Source: Sipunculus nudus (Eukaryota; Annelida; Sipuncula; Golfingiida; Sipunculidae). From it: a stretch of DNA of 64,000 nucleotides. Where the stretch lies: contig CM049320.1 of NCBI GenBank assembly GCA_026874595.1, positions 28,072,714 to 28,136,713 of the forward strand, read 5' to 3'. Positions 24,806 to 48,129 of the stretch are shown here, in pieces (the first letter of the stretch is position 1; each line of letters starts with the position of its first letter). The translations under genes and the position numbers were made by a program. The notes below the pieces were generated by a model. It ran no database searches and was not told where the DNA came from. It worked only from the letters and a program-made list of their open reading frames with translations.

Positions 24806-27516
24806 CTAAAAATTTAAATTACAATTGATAACGACAACTGCACATAAACCAAAAGTGTTAATTGTGGGTTTAAACTGCTAATGTATTTAAAATGTTAAAT
24901 GAGCACTAAGATAAAGAGTTATCTGTGACATAATTTTATTTAAATGGGAAATTATATGATGTTTGCTTCTGAATATCATAACCATAGTTTTATTATGAAC
25001 TGTTAAAGAGCAACATATAGTTTAAAAATGCATTGTTGTACCTGGTTTGTAGTAGAAAAGATCAAAGCCAGTCTTATTTACTTGGTTCTCAGTTTTGCTC
25101 AAGCATGCACCTCCCATAATATGCATGCCTATTTTTCGATTCACTAACAGCAGCACAGAGTAATATTTTTGAGATTTGAAAGAAAAGTAGCCAAGCTATA
25201 TAGTAAATTTTAGCCTGATTGTGCTGATTTAAGCGATACTGATGTAAATTGCTCATGTCATTAAATAATGATTAAATACTTGATAATGTTCACTTGCTTT
25301 TGATCATTCATTGATGCAACTGATTTGCATATATTAAAAACAACTAATTTTACATTCAATCCTGTTGATTCATATTTAAATCCGTTCCTGCTTATTTGTT
25401 TTGATGTGGTTGGTATATATACTTCATAATATAATGCTGATTCAGTGAGAAAACAACTGTACCAATTTACTGAAGGTAGATGAAAACGTGTGACACATTT
25501 CTAAGAAATTAACAGCAAGAGTCAAATTGAATGTTTAAGTTCCTATTAGTGTTTGGAATTGTGGAAAAGTACATGGCATCTTAATTTTAAAATGTAAGAG
25601 GCATTTAAGTATTAGAACGGAGTTACCGACTAGTTTTAGCTGATATAATTTTAAGAAACCTACCTTTCTTCTTTAGCAGCCGCCGTTTCCTCCCTCCGTC
25701 CCTGTCACTTGCATATTTAAGCCATTTTTTATGGCTTCCTCTGCCTGGCTTTCGGTCAGGTTGCTGCCCTTTGCTGCATCTGTTTCATGAGATAAATTAT
25801 AAAATAAATCAATATTTTGTTCTGTTGTTGTTTCACAATGTAATTGGCATAATATCTGACAAGGTCAATGAAATAATTCTGAAACAAAATGGTTTCCAAT
25901 ATGGAATTACATGTGTATTGTAATAGAAAAAAAAATACATCCAATATGCAATACACCTGCTATTTATTAATACAGAGACGAGGCATTTGGAGTAAGACGG
26001 TTTAAAATTTTCATTTCAGATTCAGTATTATTTTTAGCTTAATAGGTTGGCTTTTTGTCCCATCTGGGTCCCATGCTATATATACCACTGATATCAGTTT
26101 ATACAGACCGCCAAATTATGGTTAATAGTATTTAACAAGTTTTGAAGTTAGATATGAAACCATTTATGAAACTTATACTTTTTGTCTCATACCTTTAATT
26201 ACACCGGCCAGAAGCAGACTCCTGAGACCTATCTTGCTGCCTTTCCCCAGCCAGTTGAACTGGCTGGCAAGTGGGTTTGTCATCAGCTCTGTCATGATTC
26301 TGCTGATGACCTCTTTTGCATTAAACCCTCCGAGACTGCACAGGTAGCGAACCTATGGAACGATAATTTATTACAAATTAATACACACAGACTGGTTTGA
26401 GATTGGATGCTTTTCAGCTTCAGTCATGCTGAAATATATAAATGAGTCTTTTTTTCCCCCATCAGCCTTCTGTCAGGAAGTTTATTGAAAGGCACAAATC
26501 ATAACTGTTAGACCTTGTCAGTTCTTGCTTAACATGCCCTATTAAAATCATCTTGGATTCCCCGCATAAGATCACAGTGACCCATTCTGGGAGTTGAAGA
26601 AATACTTGGCCAATGATAATCAGGTCACTGATGTAGATGGAGCTTCTTTATTACCTTGATGCTGTTACACATGTAGCCAGCAGGATAGCTTGTACTCAAA
26701 TCCTTTATCTGACTGTATTACTACACATGCTATATATAGACTGTATAAATGCGATACATGATATAGTGCTGTATGTGTATCATATCACTACAGGAGTTAC
26801 ATAGTAAAAACATGTTTTTTTCACCATGAGAGTGGGCTCTCCTATTTATTGATGTGGAACAAACATTTCAAACAATTAACATTTAATAATGTACCAGATC
26901 ACAAAAATTTGTCCGACACATATATCCTAGTCAGAAAGCCAAATAGGAACAAAACTAGGTAGGGTGCCTTACCATACATGCAGATTTTCACCCGCGCGGG
27001 TACCGGCATGCGGGTGACTTATTAGTTGGGATAAACGCATGCACTAATAACAATATTTCTCAAATTTTAGTGTAATGTGTTTAGAAAATATTAAGTGTAA
27101 ACAGTTATACTAACTGATGAGGCATATTAAAGCGGATTAATATCTCATCTCACCAACCAGGCTTGAATGGTGGCTATTTCCTGTTACACTCTTAACTAAA
27201 TCTGGCCCCGGGCCGCATCGCAATGAAGACTGGTCGTATATTTTTTATGCAGTCTAATGAGCTCTATCAGCTCCTTTTTCTTTTCAAATACAAGGACACA
27301 TTACTTACAAGGGACCTCCGTTTCTCTTTGTCTTCGAGAAGTGTATTTATAGTAGCAACATCATTTTCTGACCTCAGTGGAAGATTGAAATCCTCTATAG
27401 CAACTTTAATGTCCACATCTGGTGTCTGTTGGTTCTCAAGAATTTTCTTGAGAAGTATGGTGTTTGAACGTATCATGCCCTTGATTTTTTCAAGTTCTAT
27501 TAGGACCTTTTTGTCC
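24726..27516 (-). CDS. DUF4806-domain protein, one-base frameshift
   Basis: Minus-strand exons: 27309-27516, 26193-26352, 25664-25779, 24726-24805; a possible first exon is 27900-27924. The order of motifs matches the DUF4806 pattern as I know it: an Ile/Leu-rich helix (KKVLIELEKIKGMIRSN), FNLPLRSENDVATINTLL, VRYLCSLGGFNAKEVI, LMTNPLASQFNWLGKGSK, a TESQAEEAIK helix, then KKWLKYASDRDGGRKRR and an acidic Ser-rich tail ending SSETSADED. Exon 3 is 116 nt. The frame changes in a six-A run (plus 25725-25730). One more A would make 117 nt and would restore both the motif and the phase needed by the last exon. So it is either a one-base assembly error or a broken gene. Function unknown; DUF4806 proteins are often multicopy. 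It lies inside the TIR element 24051-29793. Confidence 0.75.
25664..25779 (-). CDS. DUF4806 gene, exon with A-tract frameshift
   Basis: 116 nt, acceptor GAAACAG, donor GTAGGT. The first part reads DAAKGSNLTESQAEEAIK in the entry frame. The second part, WLKYASDRDGGRKRRLLKKK, is in the next frame. Confidence 0.75.
26193..26352 (-). CDS. DUF4806 gene, central domain exon
   Basis: 160 nt, phase 0/1, acceptor TTCCATAG, donor GTATGA. Reads VRYLCSLGGFNAKEV...LMTNPLASQFNWLG. The upstream acceptor was chosen over CTGTGCAG because only it keeps phase 0 and the VRYLCSLGG motif. Confidence 0.8.
27309..27516 (-). CDS. DUF4806 gene, N-terminal domain exon
   Basis: 208 nt, starts phase 2, acceptor AATTGCAG, donor GTAAGT. 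Encodes DKKVLIELEKIKGMI... and IEDFNLPLRSENDVATIN. Confidence 0.8.
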
Positions 27517-27899
27517 CTGCAATTATAACAGAGCTCAAGGACCAAAAACTCACATGTGAATGTTTCCAATATGATAAAACTGTAAAAGCATAATCTGTAT
27601 ATTTCATAAGGGAAACTTCTTGAAATTTAATAATTCCAGCTGAACATCTGCAGAGAATTCTAACAGGATACAGGAACTTTAGGCATAAACTACTATTATG
27701 CTGAACAGTTTGCAACTTTGACATGGCTGCTATGTTGAGATTTTACAAATATATTCATGTCAGTTAAGAAGGAAAAAAAAAGCTGAATGGACTGTCCTTA
27801 AAACTTTTATATGATTACAGTAATAGTATAGGGAATAATGAACTCTCTGTTACTTCTTTACTGGTATTCATGATGCCTGTATAAAAGCTGAACACTTAC

Positions 27900-36873: not shown

Positions 36874-36996
36874 TTAGTTTAAGTTTTCTTGGAGCGGACC
36901 GAAGGCGTATTTTCCGTATGATCCATCCTTGCTTCCCCAAGTAAAATCGGTATAACAGTCCCTGAACCTGTCCAAGGTCAGCTTGTATTTTCCATT
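36874..36996 (-). CDS. EF-hand gene, terminal exon
   Basis: 123 nt, phase 0 start, acceptor CATTTCAG. Encodes NGKYKLTLDRFRDCYTDFTW...YGKYAFGPLQ, stop TAA. Confidence 0.9.
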   Translation of the reverse strand, partial: NGKYKLTLDRFRDCYTDFTWGSKDGSYGKYAFGPLQENLN

Positions 36997-39847
36997 CTGA
37001 AATGAAAAGAGGCAGAGAATACAATATCTTTACCCAATCAATCATATGTCGTGTTTGGGGTCACGTGGTTTAGCAAGAAAATAAATAAAAAGTAGGTCTC
37101 TTAGGGACCGCGCATCAATTTTGCCCCGCATCAAATATTGTTGTAAAAATAAATATATCTAGGAATTTACTTCTTTAGAGACAGCTACTCGGACACATAA
37201 TAATAAAAATTTCGATACAGTTCACATTGTTATGTTGTGCTTCTATCTTTAAAATCATTTCAATTCTGTTGTAAATATTTTGTTATTTGATCATATATGA
37301 TTTTTTATCGATAACCCGTCATAGAAATATCCCAAACCTTTTGTTTTATATTTTCTTCAATTACATTTCTTTCTACACTTAATATTGAACTAAAAAAGTA
37401 TGATTTAATAAAAATTGTCAATTAATTGTTAAACAAGAAAGAAACACGGTGGGGGGGGGGGGCAGTTTTGAGATAATGTAATATAGTTTGATATTTGCCC
37501 ACTGAAAGTTGTTTGTTGTTACTATTTGCTTAAAATCGTGAGCAGTTAAAAAAAACTAAAATTGTCTAAAATATTAAAATACGATATTATTTTCTTCAAT
37601 TATTTTTTGTCTATACTTAGAATTGAATTTTAAATTTTTGATCTAATGAAAGAATCAAGTAACACGGTAGTCGAGACAATTTTGAGATAATGTTATAAGT
37701 TTGCTGTTACTCTTTGCTTAAATTATGGAGTTTTAAAAATATCAAATTTTCATATATATTAAAATAAGTACATATAGCTTTAGAAAGATCACTACAGTAG
37801 GCTTATTATGATATCTTCATGGGTTTAATGTTAATTCTAAATGACTTTTGAACTGTTTTAATATCTAGGGTGTTTGCAACCTGAATATTACAGCCGTACC
37901 TCTGTCATATGTGCGATGTGCTGACGCGCCTCCTCCAAACTGATGGCAGGAGGATCCCACTGACCCCAGAACACTCTGTATTCCTCCGCGTCAATCATTC
38001 CGTCCTCTGGTAATTAAATAAAAAAAAGTTCTAATAAAGGTAAACATTCTCCAATCAAAATCATTTAAACGCATGAATAATGTTATTATACCCTCGAGTG
38101 GCTTAATGTTTATAGATGGGATCGGTAAATACGAGTGAATCGGGAGAGGGTCCAAAGTGGGGGGGGGGGGGGGGGGGGGGGGACTTATGGTAAGGGTTAC
38201 CCATCACGGATAATTGATACATTTTGAATATTTAGGGCGTAATGCTGCAATCAGGAGTAGTTTTAATGTATGCACATGATGCAAATTCCGCCCCTGCGCA
38301 TGGCAGATACTATAACTTACAAATAGATGACCACAAGATGTTTTTATAGATTATTACACGTTAGTTTGTAATTTCTGTAAACCTATACACATGAAACGTT
38401 CAAGTGGAATCAACGAATATTATATAGTTCAAATCAAGCTTCTGGGAATGTTTCGTTTCTTGTATCAGGTTTATATTCGGTTACCTCAGAAACAGCATTT
38501 TTTATGAACAAGGATTTTAGGCAGGTCTTCATTGGCTGAGTTATGATTGTATGAGGTTCAAATGAGGTTCTCCTGATGTTGTTGCGGATATACACGAGAT
38601 TCTCTTGAGGTTTCGGGGGTTGCAAAATACGAGGTTCTATCGACGTTTAGGTGGTGAGTGCGGATATACGAGGTTCTACTGAGGTTGGGGTGGTTGGTAC
38701 GGATTAACGAGGTTTTACTGAGGTAGATGTGGTTGGTACGGATATATGAGGTTTTTCATGAGGCTGGGGTGGTTTACGGATATACAAGGTTCTACTGAGG
38801 TTGGGGTAGATGGTACGGATATACGAGATTCTACTGAGAGTGGGTTGGTTGGTACAGACATACGAGGTTCTACTGAGGTTAGGGTATTATTAGTTGATAA
38901 TAAGAGAAACTCACTTTTCTCGTCAATGAGAGTAAACATTGCATCAGCCATGGTCTTCAAGAACTCGGGAAGGTTTTCAAACGATTTGGCACGTGGTGTT
39001 CTTGTGATTCTGTAAGTAAAATACATTTTTATTAGTTTACACCGATCCCTTCATGTTATATAAATAACAATTATTCCAGCTAATGACATGCAAGCTTATT
39101 ATATGTTTTTTATCTCTAGGGGTCATATTTTCATTGGTTATTAATATAACGGAAGAGAGCACCGCAAGAGCGCATTATACCTGCGTTGTAAGTCTTGTTA
39201 CCTCTAGCCTCATTTAGCATGCGCATTCATTTTTCCGAGTACGGAACTTTGGTAATATACTTTATCGGTTAACTTTCAAACTGAGTTTCATCAAAATTCA
39301 GCAGTTCCTTGTAATATATCTTGGCGACAGGAAGTCTGGTAACCTTTGACCTCAAATTAATATTCATGGAGTTGAAAAAAATCGAATTCAGGCGATATAC
39401 TTAATGATAAATATTCATTGAGCATTTTATGAAAATTTATCAAATTCCTGGTGAGTTTTCTCGGCGACAAAAAGGGTTAACGGACGGAATCACAGACGAG
39501 CGTTATCGTAAGAAGTTATAAAAGGAATATCGTTACACTCTGATTTTCTGACGATAGGAGGCGCTGTGTTTCAACAGGCGGCGAATTAACGAGGCTTTAC
39601 GGTACCTTGGGTAGTATGCCAGCCATTCCTCCAGAGACAGGACGCCATCTTTGTTTTCATCCATGAACTTGAGCATGCGCGACCAGTGAGCTTCGAACTC
39701 TTGTTGGAACGCATATAGTAAGTCGTCGCCTTCTTTCAAGCCGTAACAAACCTTGATTTTCTGAGGAAATTAATTCAATGATTAGGATGGATGTTTGTGA
39801 AAACTGTGTTATTAACATGGGAATCTACCACCAACAAAAACAAGTTC

Positions 39848-39890
<43 letters not shown>

Positions 39891-42800
39891 TCTCGAACTG
39901 TTAACACTTATTCAGTGACAGCAACCCCCCCCCCCCCCACCCCCCAAAAAAATTAAGTTTTCTTTATTTCCATATTGGCTTCCTTATTGGAGTAACTTAA
40001 ATGAATAATTCATAGCATTATGTTCCATTTTATCGCTTGGATACACTTTATTTTCAAGTAAACAAACACTAAACTTATAACTCGATAATAAAATTATTTA
40101 AAAGAAATTGAATAATATCAGCTTCACTCAAAACACACTAATAATATTCATATTCCTGTTACACAGACATCTTCTCTTTATTATTAAGTGATTGTGTTTA
40201 TTTGTTTTCTGTCATAACATGTGACAGATTAATCATTAAACCTGGTCTGTCCCAACCAGAAATTCTTGTTCGTTCAAAACACGTTGAGTTTGTTATATTA
40301 TTCTCCAGCAGGTGGCAGCAACTATGGTCTCAACCAGCACATTGCGCAGAATCGGACGCTCAAGAGAGTAAAAGCTGGTCAGGGATTGTGGGTAAAGAGT
40401 TAAGACATCCTTCCCCCACAATTCACTTGGGCGGCGGTGTAGGTATAAATGTGAGGAAGAAGTCGATGTGCAATATGTTGGATCATAATCGTGGTGGTAT
40501 TTTCATTTCCTACTATTAAATTCGGATTTAGGCGTGGACGTAAAAAAAATCGTTATTCCGCTTTTAAGGCAGCCGATACACGTCCCTTAGTCACCAATCT
40601 CTCCCCGTAGATACATTCCCGCCTGAATGATGTTCTGGGAGTACTTTTTTTTATCCCATCCCAGCGCCCTTTTTGAACCCGGACTGGTCTGTCCTCCCAA
40701 ATATTGCCCCTGTCAGGGGCGCCATTTCATACATACTAAACCCCGGGTGACGGAGATTAAAGTCCGAGTTTGCAAATGTATGAATTTACTGGTTCATCTT
40801 ACATTATGAATGACCATCTTACCTCTATGTACTCGGTATAATCTTCATGCTCAATGGCGCCATCACCATCGATGTCTGTAACCAGCATTTAAATAAAACA
40901 AATGACGCCTGGTACAGTTATATCAGTCACCCAAGCTGGAGGGGGCAAGCAAACAGTTAGAAGCACACGTAGTTGCTGCAAGCCAATGATTGGTAACAGC
41001 TCTATATACTTAGCGTGCCAGAGGCAAAAGCGTGAGTCGTGGTTTGAAAAAAGCATTTCCTTACCTCCCACCTTGTACACATAACCTGACCAAGGATTAT
41101 TGTGTTATCACCGGAGTTCGCTGCCTTTGATTTTATTATTTTGTTAGCAAGATACCTCAAAGCAATTTCAATAGAATTTGGTAGGGGTCGTTGGTGATTT
41201 TTTAAAAAGTAAAGTTTGGGTGTAAGCTGATTTATTATGTTGCATATCCCGTGATGCAATAGAATCTGAGAAAATGATTCGATGCATTCTTAATGTTTCT
41301 TATCATTCTTGGTTGGGGGGGGAATACATGTGCAGTCTTATCCTCAGATCAGAAAAACCTCCTATCAGAGTTCAAATTGTTGTATCCGGTTCTATATTAT
41401 CATTGCTCTTTGGTGAGTTTGGCTGTACATAATCTTATCAGTGAATATCTCCAATACTGCATATTGGTGGAGGGATTTCCCTTCATTATATAATACACAT
41501 TGGTGGAGGGATTCCCCGTCATAATAATGCACATAGTTGGAGGGATTCCCCGTCATTATACCGCGAGTTTGTGGACTGGGAAGCCAAGATTCGCCGGCCA
41601 GTCAGTTCTGATTTCTCAATTAGTATATATCAGCCCGTAAAACCCAAGAAATAGTGCGTTTTGTCCAGGAAATTGTTGTAAAAATCAAGGGCCGAAAATG
41701 AGTGTTTATGAGATTAAATAAAAAGAGTACTAAAGGTGACCCCAAATAAATATACCCATAAACAGAGGATTGTGTTGTAATCCCTGTAGCAAAATACCTG
41801 TCTTACCTCCACATAAAGGTCATAATCTTTATGTTCGATGCATCCATTACCGTTAACATCTGGAATAAGTATGGTGGATATTAAAATGTGATATTATTCA
41901 ACCCGGACTTCTGGATGAAGATCCGAAAGTTGCAGACAGGTCTAGTAAAAGCTTCAGAAAGTAAAAGCTGCTACTTTTGCGGAAATTGCAGAACTATTCA
42001 CTACATCACATTTGAACTTGTTAGAGTCCATGGTTTTATGGGCCCTTTTATTTGCCTTATTTCGGCATCAGATGAAGTGCATGTTCAGGCATGCTGAGAT
42101 GGCAGTATCAAGGATATGAAGATAAACTTGATATTCTACAAACCTCCAAATATTTTTCATAATCTTCATGTTCTACCTCACCATCCCCATCAACGTCTAA
42201 CAGAAATAAAGACAGAAACAAACATGCAGCAGACACAGGGAGGCAAAGCGACAGAAGAAAATACAGAACACCTTGCTTATATAATGTTTGATCGATCAAT
42301 TACTACAGTGTTATGAGTGATTCTCTGGCAGTATTTACCAATTTGTAATGTAGAACATATCCTGGCAGCTACACTTTGCTTTATTTGCATAGCACTTGCT
42401 TTGTCGAGCCGTTCTGGCGTCTATTTCATGAACAATAAAGAAGGTTACTACACCAATCAAATGACCCACCTGCACTTTCTCTACGCGGCAGCCGAAGCAC
42501 ATATATTGCTATTCTAAGATCTTAAGTTTCACATTGCCAGAAAAGGCACCGACCAGTGAAATAAAGGCTAGTAAATATATCCTATTTCTGGTGCATGTGT
42601 TTTTGTTCTAAAATTTGTTTACTATTGTGTATTGTTTACACTTGATACGCTTGATTTCATTGGTTATAATGATTTCGAGCACGATCATATGCATGCAGGA
42701 TTGTTAATTATTCGTGAAATAGATATATATTAGACAGACTAAATAAAGCAAGGTCTCTGTAAGCGTAGCTGCCAGCGCCATGCTTACATAATGATGTATA

Positions 42801-45800
42801 ATGTTATATACATTTTCATCGACGTCATCTGATTGGTCCATTTTCCAGTGCTCTCCTTATACATGGAGTTAAAATTTTGTATTCGGTGCGCTTTTTTCTT
42901 AATTTGTTTATACAATATTGCAAATAGTATCACATTCAAAATAATGCAAGTTCCCTTTCCTGTGAATCTGATTGTGAGGCGTCAATGGTTAATAAATTAC
43001 ATTATTGCATTTCGTAACAACTTAAAGTTTTGGAAAAAGTGATCATGTAATATAATAAGTGTATTAGATACCAAAACAAAATATTTAATTTTCATGCAGA
43101 CAGTTAAGAAAGCAGGATTGAAATATATGCGAAATACATGTAAGCAATAAGAAGAAAGATCAACAAGCAAACGTTAATTAATAACATATAGAATATACAC
43201 ATTAAGACATGGTGAAAGAGAACAACTTTGAAGTAAAATATGGTGTCAAAAGTATCCATGAAAATAATGTAGATAGCTTATATGAATTTAATCAGTATTA
43301 CAGGCATCTAATTCTTAAAAATATACAGTTTATTAAAGCAACATAAATATACAAATCATAAAGTAACTTTCTATACGCATAAGATATATTAACTAAATAC
43401 TTTACATTAACAATTTACATTCCTTATGATATCACAAACATTTATTACAAGATATCTAATATATGCATTAATGGCGCACTTGGAACATTGCACATTATAA
43501 TTTGAATGGAAAACATAATAACTGAACTGAAGTGTGAATATAATTGTATATTTTACAGACTTGGTGTGATTGAATTGCTCTGGTTTCAAATTAAAAAAAA
43601 AAGTCAGAGCTTAAAATCACATTTTTAATGTTACCGTATTATTTGACATTTCCCTATCTTTTTTTTGTAACTAGTACTTACATTTATCAAGGACGGTTAA
43701 CTAAATAGTGTGATGTGTGCATAGGAACACATAATTTTTCATTATTCTAGTTTGATTTTGATACTTTTCCAAAGAGAGAAAAAAATAAACTCTGTAAGTT
43801 TGACGCTTAACTGCTATACAATATCAAGCTGGCTAGCTAGATCTTGCTCTTAAAGTCACTAGACTGACACGGTTGAGGTGATCTGGGATCACCGCCCCGG
43901 TTGTCTCTTTAGACTATTTTGCTGAGCCGATAGACGAGACGCCACAGACAAGCCAAGCCTCCAAAAGCCAGGAGAGGTCGCCACCTACCCGCACCGGGGA
44001 CCAGGAAGGCAGGGAGGAGTCGAAGAGGAGAGAGACACTTACAGCGCCACACCCTCACAAAGTAATATCATCATCAGCAATTTCATCATCAGCAAATATC
44101 CAGCTGGTGAGAGTATCATTTATTATTTATGCTTTAAACAAGAAAAAAATCAGGTTTAAGATATAGGCCTGAATTCTACGGAGGTCATACATTATTCTCC
44201 TAATACATTGCATTATTCACTGCACAATATTCAGTCATATTATGTTTACAAAATTTTAACAGATGCATCATATTGATTTTAGCAAACACCAACAGTCTGA
44301 ATATTACAAACAGAGCAATTTATTCTGACTTTCAGTGTGAGATAAAAGGCACAGTTGCCTAGTTTTTTACACAAACGCAAGGTGGCGCTCCGCTACAGCC
44401 GGTGGTTGGCCTGTGGAAGAGGCTGGCAGTGTCCTGGCGCTAGGGCTCAAGCGAGTCGGTTCATACCTAGGTTCGAGGTTTCTTATCTGATTTCGAAAGT
44501 AACATCGGACCGGCCTGAACCGGGGAGTGTACTCTCCTTCTATGTTACCACTCCATGATTTGACAAAAATATTAAATATTGTATTCAATATACATGTATT
44601 TTTGTATACAGTATAGAAAAATATGGCTTTAAATGATGTTGATTCCACAGTCCCCATCAGTCTGATATGTAGAACTGATTACTTACCATACATGGAGAAT
44701 TTTCTCATAAGTTTCCTCTTCTCATAATCGTTAAGTTTTTCTCCTCTTGCGATCTTAATGTCGGTTGGAATGTCTGACGCCAGAGTCAGGACCCTAGCAC
44801 TCTGTGTAAAGGCACGGACTGGAAGATATACATAAAGGTACGTCTTTTATTTATTCGAAAGTCTCTTTATATAGATAAGGCCAACAATTTTAAAATGGCG
44901 ATGGCCAAGTCTAACAGAAAACCTCCATTTGTAGCTAAAATCTTCCGTTTGTAATTAATCTCTACCACTGAAACCACAATCCACTATCCCCTCTTCCTCT
45001 TCTTCCGATAAAAAAATTCTCTGTTCTGCATCCCAGCAAGCCACTGTGCCATTATATTAATCTGTGATTTTTTTTTATCCAATCCTCTCTCTACATAACC
45101 TAAACCATTATCATCAGTGTGTAAACAACTGTCATTAAGTGAACTTTTGTCAATACTTTCAATAATCAATAATTCTATATGTTAAGGGAACGGGCAAACC
45201 TAAGCCTTCAGGCTGGCACTCAATCCCTTTGATACTCTGCATGATCACCATGTATTTAGTACTATCTTGTATAAAAAAATCTTTCAAACAAACAGATAGA
45301 TAAGGCCCCATAAAAGGTTGTTTTCGCGGCATCGGGTATCAATTTTAACCGCCCACATGAAAATGTTTTTTTTTTTTTTTCATTTTCAGTAGAAATTTAC
45401 CGATTTAGTGCTCAATCCACCTGGATATTTCAACAAAGAACATAAAATAATAAAATTTCGTTTTGTAATGATGCGCTTTTATCTGTTTAGTATGTGAAGA
45501 GTATATAAAACAATTATGTTTTTTATCATGTTGTGTCCTGATCATATGGAATTCGTAGCGTTAATTTATCAAAAGAGTAAAATATCCACGCTGATTTATG
45601 TAAAAAGTGCATGAGAACCCAACTCCTTTTGTTTTTTTTGTTTGTTTTTTTTTTTGTTTTTTTGTTTTGCTTTATTATTGTTTTTTATTGAAACCATGGA
45701 ACTTGATTGACTTAATTTGCTTCTTTATTTAGCTACATGGCTGTCAGTCTCCGGATTTAAATCTGTCTTCACTGAGCATCTCTTTAAGACACACACACAC

Positions 45801-48032: not shown

Positions 48033-48129
48033 CGTTTTGTATACGTTTATACCGACCTTGTGAGGACTGTAACGTGACAGTTGGCAATCTGGGCAACAGC
48101 CTGCACGCTGATCTCCACAGTGACGTCAT
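36874..48129 (-). CDS. sarcoplasmic calcium-binding-like EF-hand protein with alternative EF1 exons
   Basis: Minus-strand exons: 48057-48129, 44687-44818, one of 42144-42196 / 41807-41859 / 40823-40875, 39606-39760, 38915-39009, 37900-38006, 36874-36996. With one EF1 exon the total is 738 nt: 245 residues plus TAA, all phases agreeing. Residues 1-40 are Arg/Ser/Leu-rich without acids before D41 (MTSLWRSACRLLPRLPTVTL), like a mitochondrial presequence. EF1 loop 69-80 (variable), EF2 120-131 (DENKDGVLSLEE), EF3 167-178 (DEKKDGMIDAEE), and a degenerate fourth hand around GKYKLTLDRF. The end GKYAFGPLQENLN resembles the FWGPL-type ends of annelid sarcoplasmic calcium-binding proteins. Likely a Ca2+/Mg2+ buffer. 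A calexcitin-type sensor is the alternative. Confidence 0.9.
37450..37462 (+). repeat. poly-G tract
   Basis: Uninterrupted G run in the last intron of the EF-hand gene. Confidence 0.95.
37900..38006 (-). CDS. EF-hand gene, EF3 second half
   Basis: 107 nt, starts phase 1, ends phase 0, donor GTACGG. Encodes DGMIDAEEYRVFWGQWDPP, then a helix (LEEARQHIAHMTE). Confidence 0.9.
38159..38182 (+). repeat. poly-G tract
   Basis: About 24 consecutive G, the longest of the window, in an EF-hand gene intron. Confidence 0.95.
38580..38890. repeat. ~47-bp minisatellite
   Basis: About seven units of the type 'ggatatacgaggttctactg' + 'aggttggggtggttggta', ending just before the donor side of exon 38915-39009. 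Confidence 0.9.
38915..39009 (-). CDS. EF-hand gene, exon before EF3
   Basis: 95 nt, acceptor TTTACAG, donor GTGAGT. Encodes ITRTPRAKSFENLPEF...AMFTLIDEK, so the EF3 loop is split by the next intron. Confidence 0.9.
39606..39760 (-). CDS. EF-hand gene, EF2 exon
   Basis: 155 nt, phase 0/2, acceptor TTTCCTCAG, donor GTACCG (weak). Encodes KIKVCYGLKEGDDLLYAFQQ and the EF2 loop DENKDGVLSLEE. Confidence 0.9.
39848..39888. repeat. (AAT)n microsatellite
   Basis: About 13 trinucleotide units, intronic. Confidence 0.95.
40823..40875 (-). CDS. alternative EF1 exon c
   Basis: 53 nt, phase 1/0, acceptor GTTACAG, donor GTAAGA. Loop and helix: DIDGDGAIEHEDYTEYIE. Confidence 0.9.
41458..41562. repeat. 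~35-bp minisatellite, three units
   Basis: Three copies of 'cattggtggagggattcccc' plus 'gtcattataatg'-like sequence, in the intron between EF1 exons c and b. Confidence 0.8.
41807..41859 (-). CDS. alternative EF1 exon b
   Basis: 53 nt, phase 1/0, acceptor TTATTCCAG, donor GTAAGA. DVNGNGCIEHKDYDLYVE: Asn replaces Asp at loop positions 3 and 5, and Cys sits at position 7. Confidence 0.9.
42144..42196 (-). CDS. alternative EF1 exon a
   Basis: 53 nt, phase 1/0, acceptor TCTGTTAG, donor GTTTGT (weaker than in b and c). DVDGDGEVEHEDYEKYLE. Confidence 0.9.
44687..44818 (-). CDS. EF-hand gene, exon before EF1
   Basis: 132 nt, phase 1/1, acceptor ATCTTCCAG, donor GTAAGT. Encodes RAFTQSARVLTLASDIPTDI and the EF1 entering helix (DYEKRKLMRKFSMY). 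Confidence 0.9.
45304..45630 (-). mobile_element. diverged MITE copy
   Basis: TAA then GGCCCCATAAAAGGTTGTTTTC... with 'catcgggtatcaattttaacc' and 'tttagtgctcaatccacctgg'. The order matches the minus-orientation copy at 9371. The right end fades into T-rich sequence. It lies in intron 1 of the EF-hand gene. Confidence 0.55.
45862..45910. repeat. (AT)n microsatellite
   Basis: 49 bases of AT; a CA/GT dyad lies just before it (about 45790-45830). Confidence 0.95.
46072..46290. mobile_element. CAGGGGCGG-ended short element
   Basis: Left CAGGGGCGGGTCTAGG and right (reverse complement CAGGGGCGGAGCCAGG) form inverted ends of the hAT-like CAGGGGCGG type. No clear 8-bp duplication. A related CAGGGGCGGACC end stands alone near 52330. 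Confidence 0.5.
46856..46957. repeat. 41-bp near-perfect palindrome
   Basis: Arms 46856-46896 and 46917-46957 are reverse complements with one mismatch (ATTCACCTTGYGCGTATACA...), around a 20-nt AT-rich loop. Possibly a snapback MITE. Confidence 0.9.
47219..47252. repeat. (AT)n microsatellite
   Basis: Intronic AT run. Confidence 0.95.
47941..48030. repeat. compound (CT)n(AC)n(AT)n microsatellite
   Basis: Lies 26 nt from the exon 1 donor of the EF-hand gene, on its intron side. Confidence 0.95.
48057..48129 (-). CDS. EF-hand gene, start exon
   Basis: 73 coding nt ending phase 1, donor GTCGGT. Start ATG at 48129-48127. The exon probably begins at 48141 after the acceptor TTTTATATTGTAG, which implies an upstream non-coding exon. 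Chosen because it is the only ATG exon found with matching phase and a presequence-like reading. Confidence 0.7.

What the first reader, a model, noticed from the sequence alone, without database searches (positions are those of the whole stretch)
40823..42196. Three frame-locked, mutually exclusive exons encode alternative EF-hand 1 loops
Exons at 42144-42196, 41807-41859 and 40823-40875 are each exactly 53 nt, start in phase 1 and end in phase 0. Splicing two in series would break the frame, and skipping all three would too. Exactly one must be used. They encode the same loop-plus-helix unit with different metal ligands. Alternative splicing near EF1 is known for some crustacean sarcoplasmic calcium-binding proteins, so there is precedent. 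A three-way cassette at the loop itself looks notable.
Basis: partly seen in the sequence, partly recalled or inferred. Interest (0 to 1): 0.9.

Follow-up and report, generated by a model that had tools for sequence, protein, structure and literature searches.

The report
Three swappable exons for calcium loop
A calcium-binding protein gene in this animal, probably a mollusc, carries three interchangeable versions of the small exon that encodes its first calcium-binding loop, and the reading frame means a full-length protein can use only one at a time; it looks like a well-preserved new case of a known way of tuning calcium proteins.

Summary
On the minus strand a gene model of seven coding exons gives a 245-residue calexcitin/SCP-type EF-hand protein. 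Its third coding exon exists in three 53-nt copies (42196-42144, 41859-41807, 40875-40823), each between AG and GT, entered in phase 1 and left in phase 0. Each copy alone gives an open 245-residue protein; zero, two or three copies give early stops 253-397 nt before the last junction. The copies are homologous (33-36 of 53 nt), while their flanking introns are no more alike than shuffles.

Two corrections. A and C have the same residues at the side-chain ligand positions; only B differs (Asn at 3 and 5). And the frame lock is inherited: two calexcitin-type paralogues on another chromosome each have one 53-nt EF1 exon at the same place and phase. So this is a tandem triplication of an ancestral asymmetric exon.

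Not shown: transcripts, tissue use, conservation in other species. Precedents exist (alpha-actinin, CaV2, OGDH, crayfish SCP variants). The least expected feature is a mitochondrial-type N-terminus, untested. Verdict: real, most likely a new member of a known kind.

The parts
48057..48129 (-). Coding exon 1: ATG plus the first part of an Arg-rich, acid-free N-terminal extension (MTSLWRSACRLLPRLPTVTLQSSQ)
   Evidence: Read; modelled; an in-frame TAG lies 4 codons upstream of the ATG; followed by AAG|gtcggt. A model from sequence, no transcript; exon 1 was not in the genome-search queries.
44687..44818 (-). Coding exon 2: rest of the presequence-like region and the incoming helix of EF-hand 1; ends in phase 1
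42144..42196 (-). Alternative exon A, 53 nt, EF1 loop plus start of outgoing helix: DVDGDGEVEHEDYEKYLE; by eye the weakest 5' splice site of the three (gtttgt) and the longest AG-free stretch upstream (73 nt)
41807..41859 (-). Alternative exon B, 53 nt: DVNGNGCIEHKDYDLYVE; Asn at loop positions 3 and 5
40823..40875 (-). Alternative exon C, 53 nt: DIDGDGAIEHEDYTEYIE; same residues as A at loop positions 1, 3, 5, 9 and 12
39606..39760 (-). Coding exon 4: starts in phase 0 (AAAATCAAG...), carries EF-hand 2 (DENKDGVLSLEE)
38915..39009 (-). Coding exon 5: linker and start of EF-hand 3
37900..38006 (-). Coding exon 6: rest of EF-hand 3 (DEKKDGMIDAEE across the junction)
36874..36996 (-). Coding exon 7: C-terminal region and stop codon (...KYAFGPLQENLN*)
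   Evidence: the C-terminal end aligns with calexcitin 'FGTL' and the 7wbo SCP 'FGPLKE'

Best explanation
This is a functional calexcitin/SCP-family gene in which an ancestral 53-nt EF1-loop exon was tandem-duplicated to three copies, and each mRNA that makes full-length protein contains exactly one. Because the exon is asymmetric (phase 1 in, phase 0 out), no copy, two copies or three copies shift the frame into an early stop that should be removed by nonsense-mediated decay. The choice leaves the rest of the protein unchanged and swaps the EF1 loop and the start of its outgoing helix. B would make a less acidic, probably weaker or faster metal site; A and C would differ mainly in loop position 7 and helix surface. 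Shown here: the anatomy, the homology of the copies, the frame consequences, the single-copy exon in two paralogues, and fewer amino-acid changes than a neutral simulation gives for two of three pairs. Inferred: use of all three copies in transcripts, removal by decay, and altered metal affinity.
For: Exons, splice sites and frame arithmetic. Homology beyond 20,000 shuffles per pair, and no comparable cassette elsewhere in the window. Flanking introns (200 nt each side) show no similarity above shuffles: 137 to 489 of 500 shuffles reach the observed local score in the six comparisons, so the copies are old while the exons stay alignable. Amino-acid differences A-C 6 against a neutral mean of 10.6 (6 and 7 of 5000 simulations as low), B-C 8 against 11.9-12.0 (40 and 18 of 5000); A-B is weak, 8 against 10.6 (289 and 314 of 5000). 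Both calexcitin-type paralogues on C4 have one 53-nt EF1 exon with the same phases. A, B and C are closer to one another (10-12 of 18 aa) than to either paralogue (5-9 of 18). Closest solved proteins: calexcitin 4ndb E 2.1e-17, SCP 7wbo 1.8e-13, SCP 2sas 3.9e-13. PMC7969005 names reading-frame incongruity through NMD as one way such exclusivity is enforced (passage).
Against: No RNA data. Exon A's 5' splice site (gtttgt) departs from the consensus, so it could be rarely used. The A-B pair shows only weak evidence of purifying selection. The neutral simulation ignores saturation and ancestry. No other species could be compared. The gene model, exon 1 above all, rests on splice consensus and homology.
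Confidence: 0.82

Rival explanations
1. Only one or two of the three exons are used; the rest are relics of old duplications that keep an open frame by chance or slow decay.
For: Exon A's 5' splice site is, by eye, the weakest of the three. The A-B comparison is only mildly below the neutral expectation (289 and 314 of 5000 simulations as low). No transcripts seen.
Against: All three keep AG/GT, the 53-nt length, an open frame and 7 of 7 loop positions of the consensus. A stop codon appears in 38-51% of neutral simulations at the observed divergence (1893 to 2558 of 5000). The flanking introns have diverged beyond recognition while the exons have not.
Confidence: 0.12
2. Exclusivity is imposed during splicing itself, by competing RNA structures (a docking site pairing with one selector per exon) or by a distant branch point, in addition to the frame and decay.
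For: The best docking candidate was matched or beaten in 1 of 34 intron shuffles. Exon A has a 73-nt AG-free upstream stretch against 22-46 nt at the other seven acceptors examined, and the highest pyrimidine fraction (0.73 against 0.43-0.70).
Against: The best docking candidate lies in a poly-G tract near 39946, i.e. low complexity. Introns of 284 and 931 nt between the copies are too long for simple steric exclusion (general knowledge). All sites are GT-AG and, by eye, U2-type. One species gives no covariation test.
Confidence: 0.25
3. The three exons belong to separate overlapping or duplicated genes rather than to one alternatively spliced gene.
For: None found.
Against: The genome search with the spliced protein returned exons 2, 4, 5, 6 and 7 once each, at this locus (exon 1 was not in the query).
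Confidence: 0.01

Closest known systems
Crayfish sarcoplasmic calcium-binding protein variants pcSCP1a-c (White et al. 2011, known here only through passages of PMC3927571)
   Same: Same broad family (SCP/calexcitin); three variants that share sequence on either side of one variable region (passages).
   Different: The original paper is not held, so the place of its variable region and its gene structure could not be compared. The gene here scores best against calexcitin and has a mitochondrial-type N-terminus.
Alpha-actinin EF-hand exons (ACTN1, ACTN4; Waites et al. 1992 as cited in PMC9741552)
   Same: Tandem duplicated exons affecting EF-hand residues; [quoted passage not shown]
   Different: Two alternatives, of which one keeps calcium binding, in a structural protein; here three copies in a small calcium-binding protein, all with a complete loop consensus.
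OGDH exons 4a/4b (PMC7969005, PMC9177970)
   Same: Mutually exclusive duplicated exons that switch calcium sensitivity; combined length not a multiple of three (passages). A mitochondrial enzyme (recalled).
   Different: The calcium site is a DADLD motif, not an EF-hand; two exons; exclusivity is ascribed to a short intron with distant branch points.
CaV2 exon pair 37a/37b (PMC5818475)
   Same: Mutually exclusive exon pair at the channel's EF-hand F helix (passages).
   Different: A pair, in a channel tail; the passages discuss kinase regulation rather than metal affinity.
Calexcitin (4ndb, 2ccm; squid, recalled)
   Same: Best match in solved structures; EF1 loop also ends in Asp at position 12.
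   Different: 26% identical to isoform A in alignment A1; the N-terminal extension of the window protein lies outside the match (query residues 51-240 of 245).

Membership tests
Calexcitin/SCP family of EF-hand proteins | Sequence similarity over nearly the whole protein to solved members | tested here: met
   4ndb E 2.1e-17 over residues 21-210 of a 215-aa query; 7wbo 1.8e-13; 2sas 3.9e-13. Five Pfam EF-hand models above their cut-offs.
Calexcitin/SCP family of EF-hand proteins | Asp at position 12 of the EF1 loop, as in the three solved proteins aligned here | tested here: met
   D12 in A, B, C, both paralogues and the calexcitin, 2sas and 7wbo loops. Three solved proteins only.
Calexcitin/SCP family of EF-hand proteins | 53-nt EF1 exon, phase 1 to phase 0, as in the two paralogues of the same genome | tested here: met
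   C4:79656454-79656402 and C4:79563976-79563924, one found in each; upstream exons end ..G|GTGAGT, next exons start in phase 0. Other species not tested.
Calexcitin proper (orthology rather than family) | Closer to calexcitin than to SCPs | tested here: inconclusive
   26% to calexcitin and 27% to amphioxus SCP in alignment A1; better phmmer score to calexcitin. The genome has two clearer calexcitin matches on C4. No tree was built.
Mutually exclusive tandem-duplicated exons | Homologous neighbouring exons of the same phase, in one gene | tested here: met
Mutually exclusive tandem-duplicated exons | One and only one copy in each mature transcript | not testable with these tools
   No transcript data. 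Of the eight combinations tested, only the three single-copy ones stay open.
Mitochondrial matrix proteins | Basic, acid-free, amphipathic N-terminal presequence with an MPP-type site | tested here: inconclusive
   Residues 1-38 have 5 Arg, no Lys, Asp or Glu; hydrophobic moment 0.62 for residues 1-18, no background control run. The RA|FTQSARVL pattern fits the R-10 (MPP then Oct1) motif as recalled. No targeting predictor or experiment was available.

The most novel reading that the evidence does not exclude
A calcium-binding protein of the calexcitin/SCP family has been moved into the mitochondrial matrix, and its first metal site is exchanged among three settings by splicing, so that tissues or states tune mitochondrial calcium buffering or sensing without changing the rest of the protein.
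Probability: 0.3. Interest if true: 0.72.

Novelty: new member of a known kind. Interest (0 to 1): 0.45.

Why it matters
It is a natural series of three EF1 loops in an otherwise constant protein, useful for asking how single EF-hand substitutions tune a calcium buffer in vivo. The comparison with the paralogues suggests a simple general route: when an exon whose length is not divisible by three is duplicated in tandem, exclusive use at the protein level comes for free. If the mitochondrial presequence is real, it would add a splice-tuned EF-hand protein to mitochondrial calcium handling.

Tried and rejected
Fourth or decayed copy: an ungapped scan of the minus strand of the gene span (48200-36800) found no further match above 29 of 53, against 33-36 between the true copies.

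RNA docking/selector structure: duplex energies against 34 intron shuffles; the best site is a poly-G tract, so I count it inconclusive. Rfam at gathering threshold: no match in the window.

Other family members: the amphioxus SCP query gave one weak hit, at a C4 calexcitin exon. Two weak C13 hits lie in stretches whose translations showed me no EF-hand pattern by eye and were dropped. A crab SCP query did not complete, so a muscle-type SCP is not excluded. The genome search is blind to single short exons: exon B itself was not returned at E up to 10, so a lone EF1 exon elsewhere could be missed. Viral contigs held no relative of exon 4.

Structure prediction was not run: a spliced protein is not a letter-for-letter translation of the window DNA, which the tool asks for. 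No tree was built.

Literature: searches (2 papers; 8; 275, 20 listed; 17, 15 listed; 3; 539, 15 listed; 780, 15 listed; 47,070, 15 listed; none) and 64 (none) listed no title or abstract that I recognised as describing this cassette. Apart from the papers named in the report I saw listings only, and the library lacks most subscription journals. PMC9100110, which held all three terms, mentions SCP once in a table and splicing once in methods (passages).

Full report
What was checked. The window lies at C15:28072714-28136713 of a 1.43-Gb genome. Four of six stretches matched by calexcitin in this genome are 51-58% identical (the others 45% and 27%); calexcitin 4ndb/2ccm is from squid (recalled), so a mollusc is likely, which is inference. 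I modelled the rest of the gene from the sequence: exon 1 at 48129-48057, exon 2 at 44818-44687, one of A, B or C, then 39760-39606, 39009-38915, 38006-37900 and 36996-36874, giving 245 residues with any one of the three. With none, two or three of them the frame breaks and a stop follows at codon 103-112, 253-397 nt before the last junction, where nonsense-mediated decay is expected from general knowledge.

More than chance. The copies share 36 (A-B), 36 (A-C) and 33 (B-C) of 53 bases; 0 of 20,000 single-base shuffles for each pair reached these values. On both strands of the window 151 stop-free AG-53-GT stretches were found (71 and 80); the three exons score 7 of 7 on an EF-loop consensus of my own and no other scores above 4. 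Flanking introns (200 nt each side) are no more alike than shuffles in any of six comparisons (137 to 489 of 500 shuffles as good), so the duplications are old. In a neutral simulation at the observed nucleotide divergence the amino-acid changes would average 10.6 to 12.0; observed are 6 for A-C (6 and 7 of 5000 simulations as low), 8 for B-C (40 and 18 of 5000) and 8 for A-B (289 and 314 of 5000), so the case for A-B alone is weak.

Correction on ligands. Loop positions 1, 3, 5, 9 and 12 read D, D, D, E, D in A and in C, and D, N, N, E, D in B. Position 7, which binds through its backbone in a canonical loop (recalled), is Glu in exon A, Cys in exon B and Ala in exon C. Acidic residues in the 12-residue loop number 7, 3 and 6. 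So B is the outlier in expected metal binding, and A and C differ mainly in position 7 and in the start of the outgoing helix. All three keep Asp at position 12, as do the calexcitin, amphioxus SCP (2sas) and crab SCP (7wbo) loops (organisms recalled, 7wbo named a Scy p 4 isoform in PMC12907440).

Where the frame lock comes from. Searching the same genome with calexcitin found matches to two calexcitin-type genes in tandem on C4. I fetched 130 kb around them. In each, one EF1-loop exon of exactly 53 nt between AG and GT was found: C4:79656454-79656402 (DINNDGVIEWEDFEIAVE) and C4:79563976-79563924 (DVNKDGKLQWKDFEMARE). The exon before ends in phase 1 (..G|GTGAGT) and the exon after starts in phase 0 in both genes. 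No further 53-nt stretch with 7 of 7 was found in the 130 kb; two others score 5 of 7 and do not read as EF loops. The window copies are closer to each other (10-12 of 18 residues) than to these (5-9 of 18). The parsimonious reading is that the family had one 53-nt exon here and this gene multiplied it to three. Since 53 is not divisible by three, exclusive use at the protein level follows without further invention.

How exclusion might work. Introns between the copies are 284 and 931 nt, too long for simple steric exclusion (general knowledge). All sites are GT-AG. Exon A has, by eye, the weakest 5' splice site of the three and a 73-nt AG-free, pyrimidine-rich stretch upstream, against 22-46 nt at the other seven acceptors examined, which would suit regulated use; this is a lead only. 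A search for a docking site pairing upstream of the three exons gave a poly-G tract near 39946, and 1 of 34 shuffles did as well: inconclusive. Reading-frame incongruity through decay is named as one enforcement mechanism in PMC7969005 (passages).

The N-terminus. The predicted protein starts MTSLWRSACRLLPRLPTVTLQSSQVRAFTQSARVLTLASD. Residues 1-38 contain five Arg and no Lys, Asp or Glu, with a hydrophobic moment of 0.62 over residues 1-18, without a background control; an in-frame stop lies four codons before the ATG. This looks like a mitochondrial presequence, and RA|FTQSARVL| fits the two-step cleavage motif as I recall it. The targeting is untested. Whether the C4 paralogues have anything similar is open: their first Met in frame lies 22 and 39 residues before the exon end (MGDFKLSDFQ...; MDDIRSFFVKIGDF...), but both frames stay open upstream, for 52 and 83 residues in all, and the second reads several Arg there, so an upstream exon is not excluded.

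What is known. PMC9177970 (abstract, passages, section 17) states that alternative splicing of calcium-binding proteins often arose upon exon duplication, naming actinins, P/Q-type channels and OGDH. PMC9741552 (passages) describes ACTN1 and ACTN4 EF-hand exons, only one version of which keeps calcium binding. PMC5818475 (passages) mentions the mutually exclusive pair 37a/37b. PMC3927571 (passages) reports three crayfish SCP variants with shared sequence on both sides of one variable region; the original paper is not held. PMC10742822 and PMC12907440 (passages) gave background on SCPs only. The finding therefore belongs to a known kind; a three-copy cassette in a calexcitin-like gene with a presequence-like N-terminus is the new part, as far as my searches show.

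Limits. One genome, no transcripts, no relatives outside it. The gene model rests on splice-site consensus and homology. The neutral simulation is simple. The genome search misses short lone exons (exon B was not returned). The interest score reflects a solid but precedented phenomenon with one unusual, untested feature.

Noticed in passing
window 48129-48057 and 44818-44687, minus strand: Predicted N-terminal extension of the protein resembles a mitochondrial presequence (5 Arg, no Lys, Asp or Glu in residues 1-38).
   Followed up: partly
G000 C4:79555580-79662346 (L020-L022, L029-L037): Two calexcitin-type genes in tandem on the minus strand of another chromosome, in each of which one 53-nt EF1 exon was found; their 5' ends are not resolved.
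   Followed up: partly
window 38627-38885: A 39-nt tandem repeat of 6.7 copies (78% matches) in the intron between exons 5 and 6 of the gene.
   Followed up: no
window 39925-39945, minus strand: A poly-G tract in the intron before exon 4; it dominated the search for RNA pairing.
   Followed up: partly
window 27267-27626, minus strand: An open stretch with a charged, helix-like reading (DKKVLIELEKIKGMIRSN...), possibly an exon of a neighbouring gene; no Pfam match (the query carried three wrong residues at its start).
   Followed up: partly
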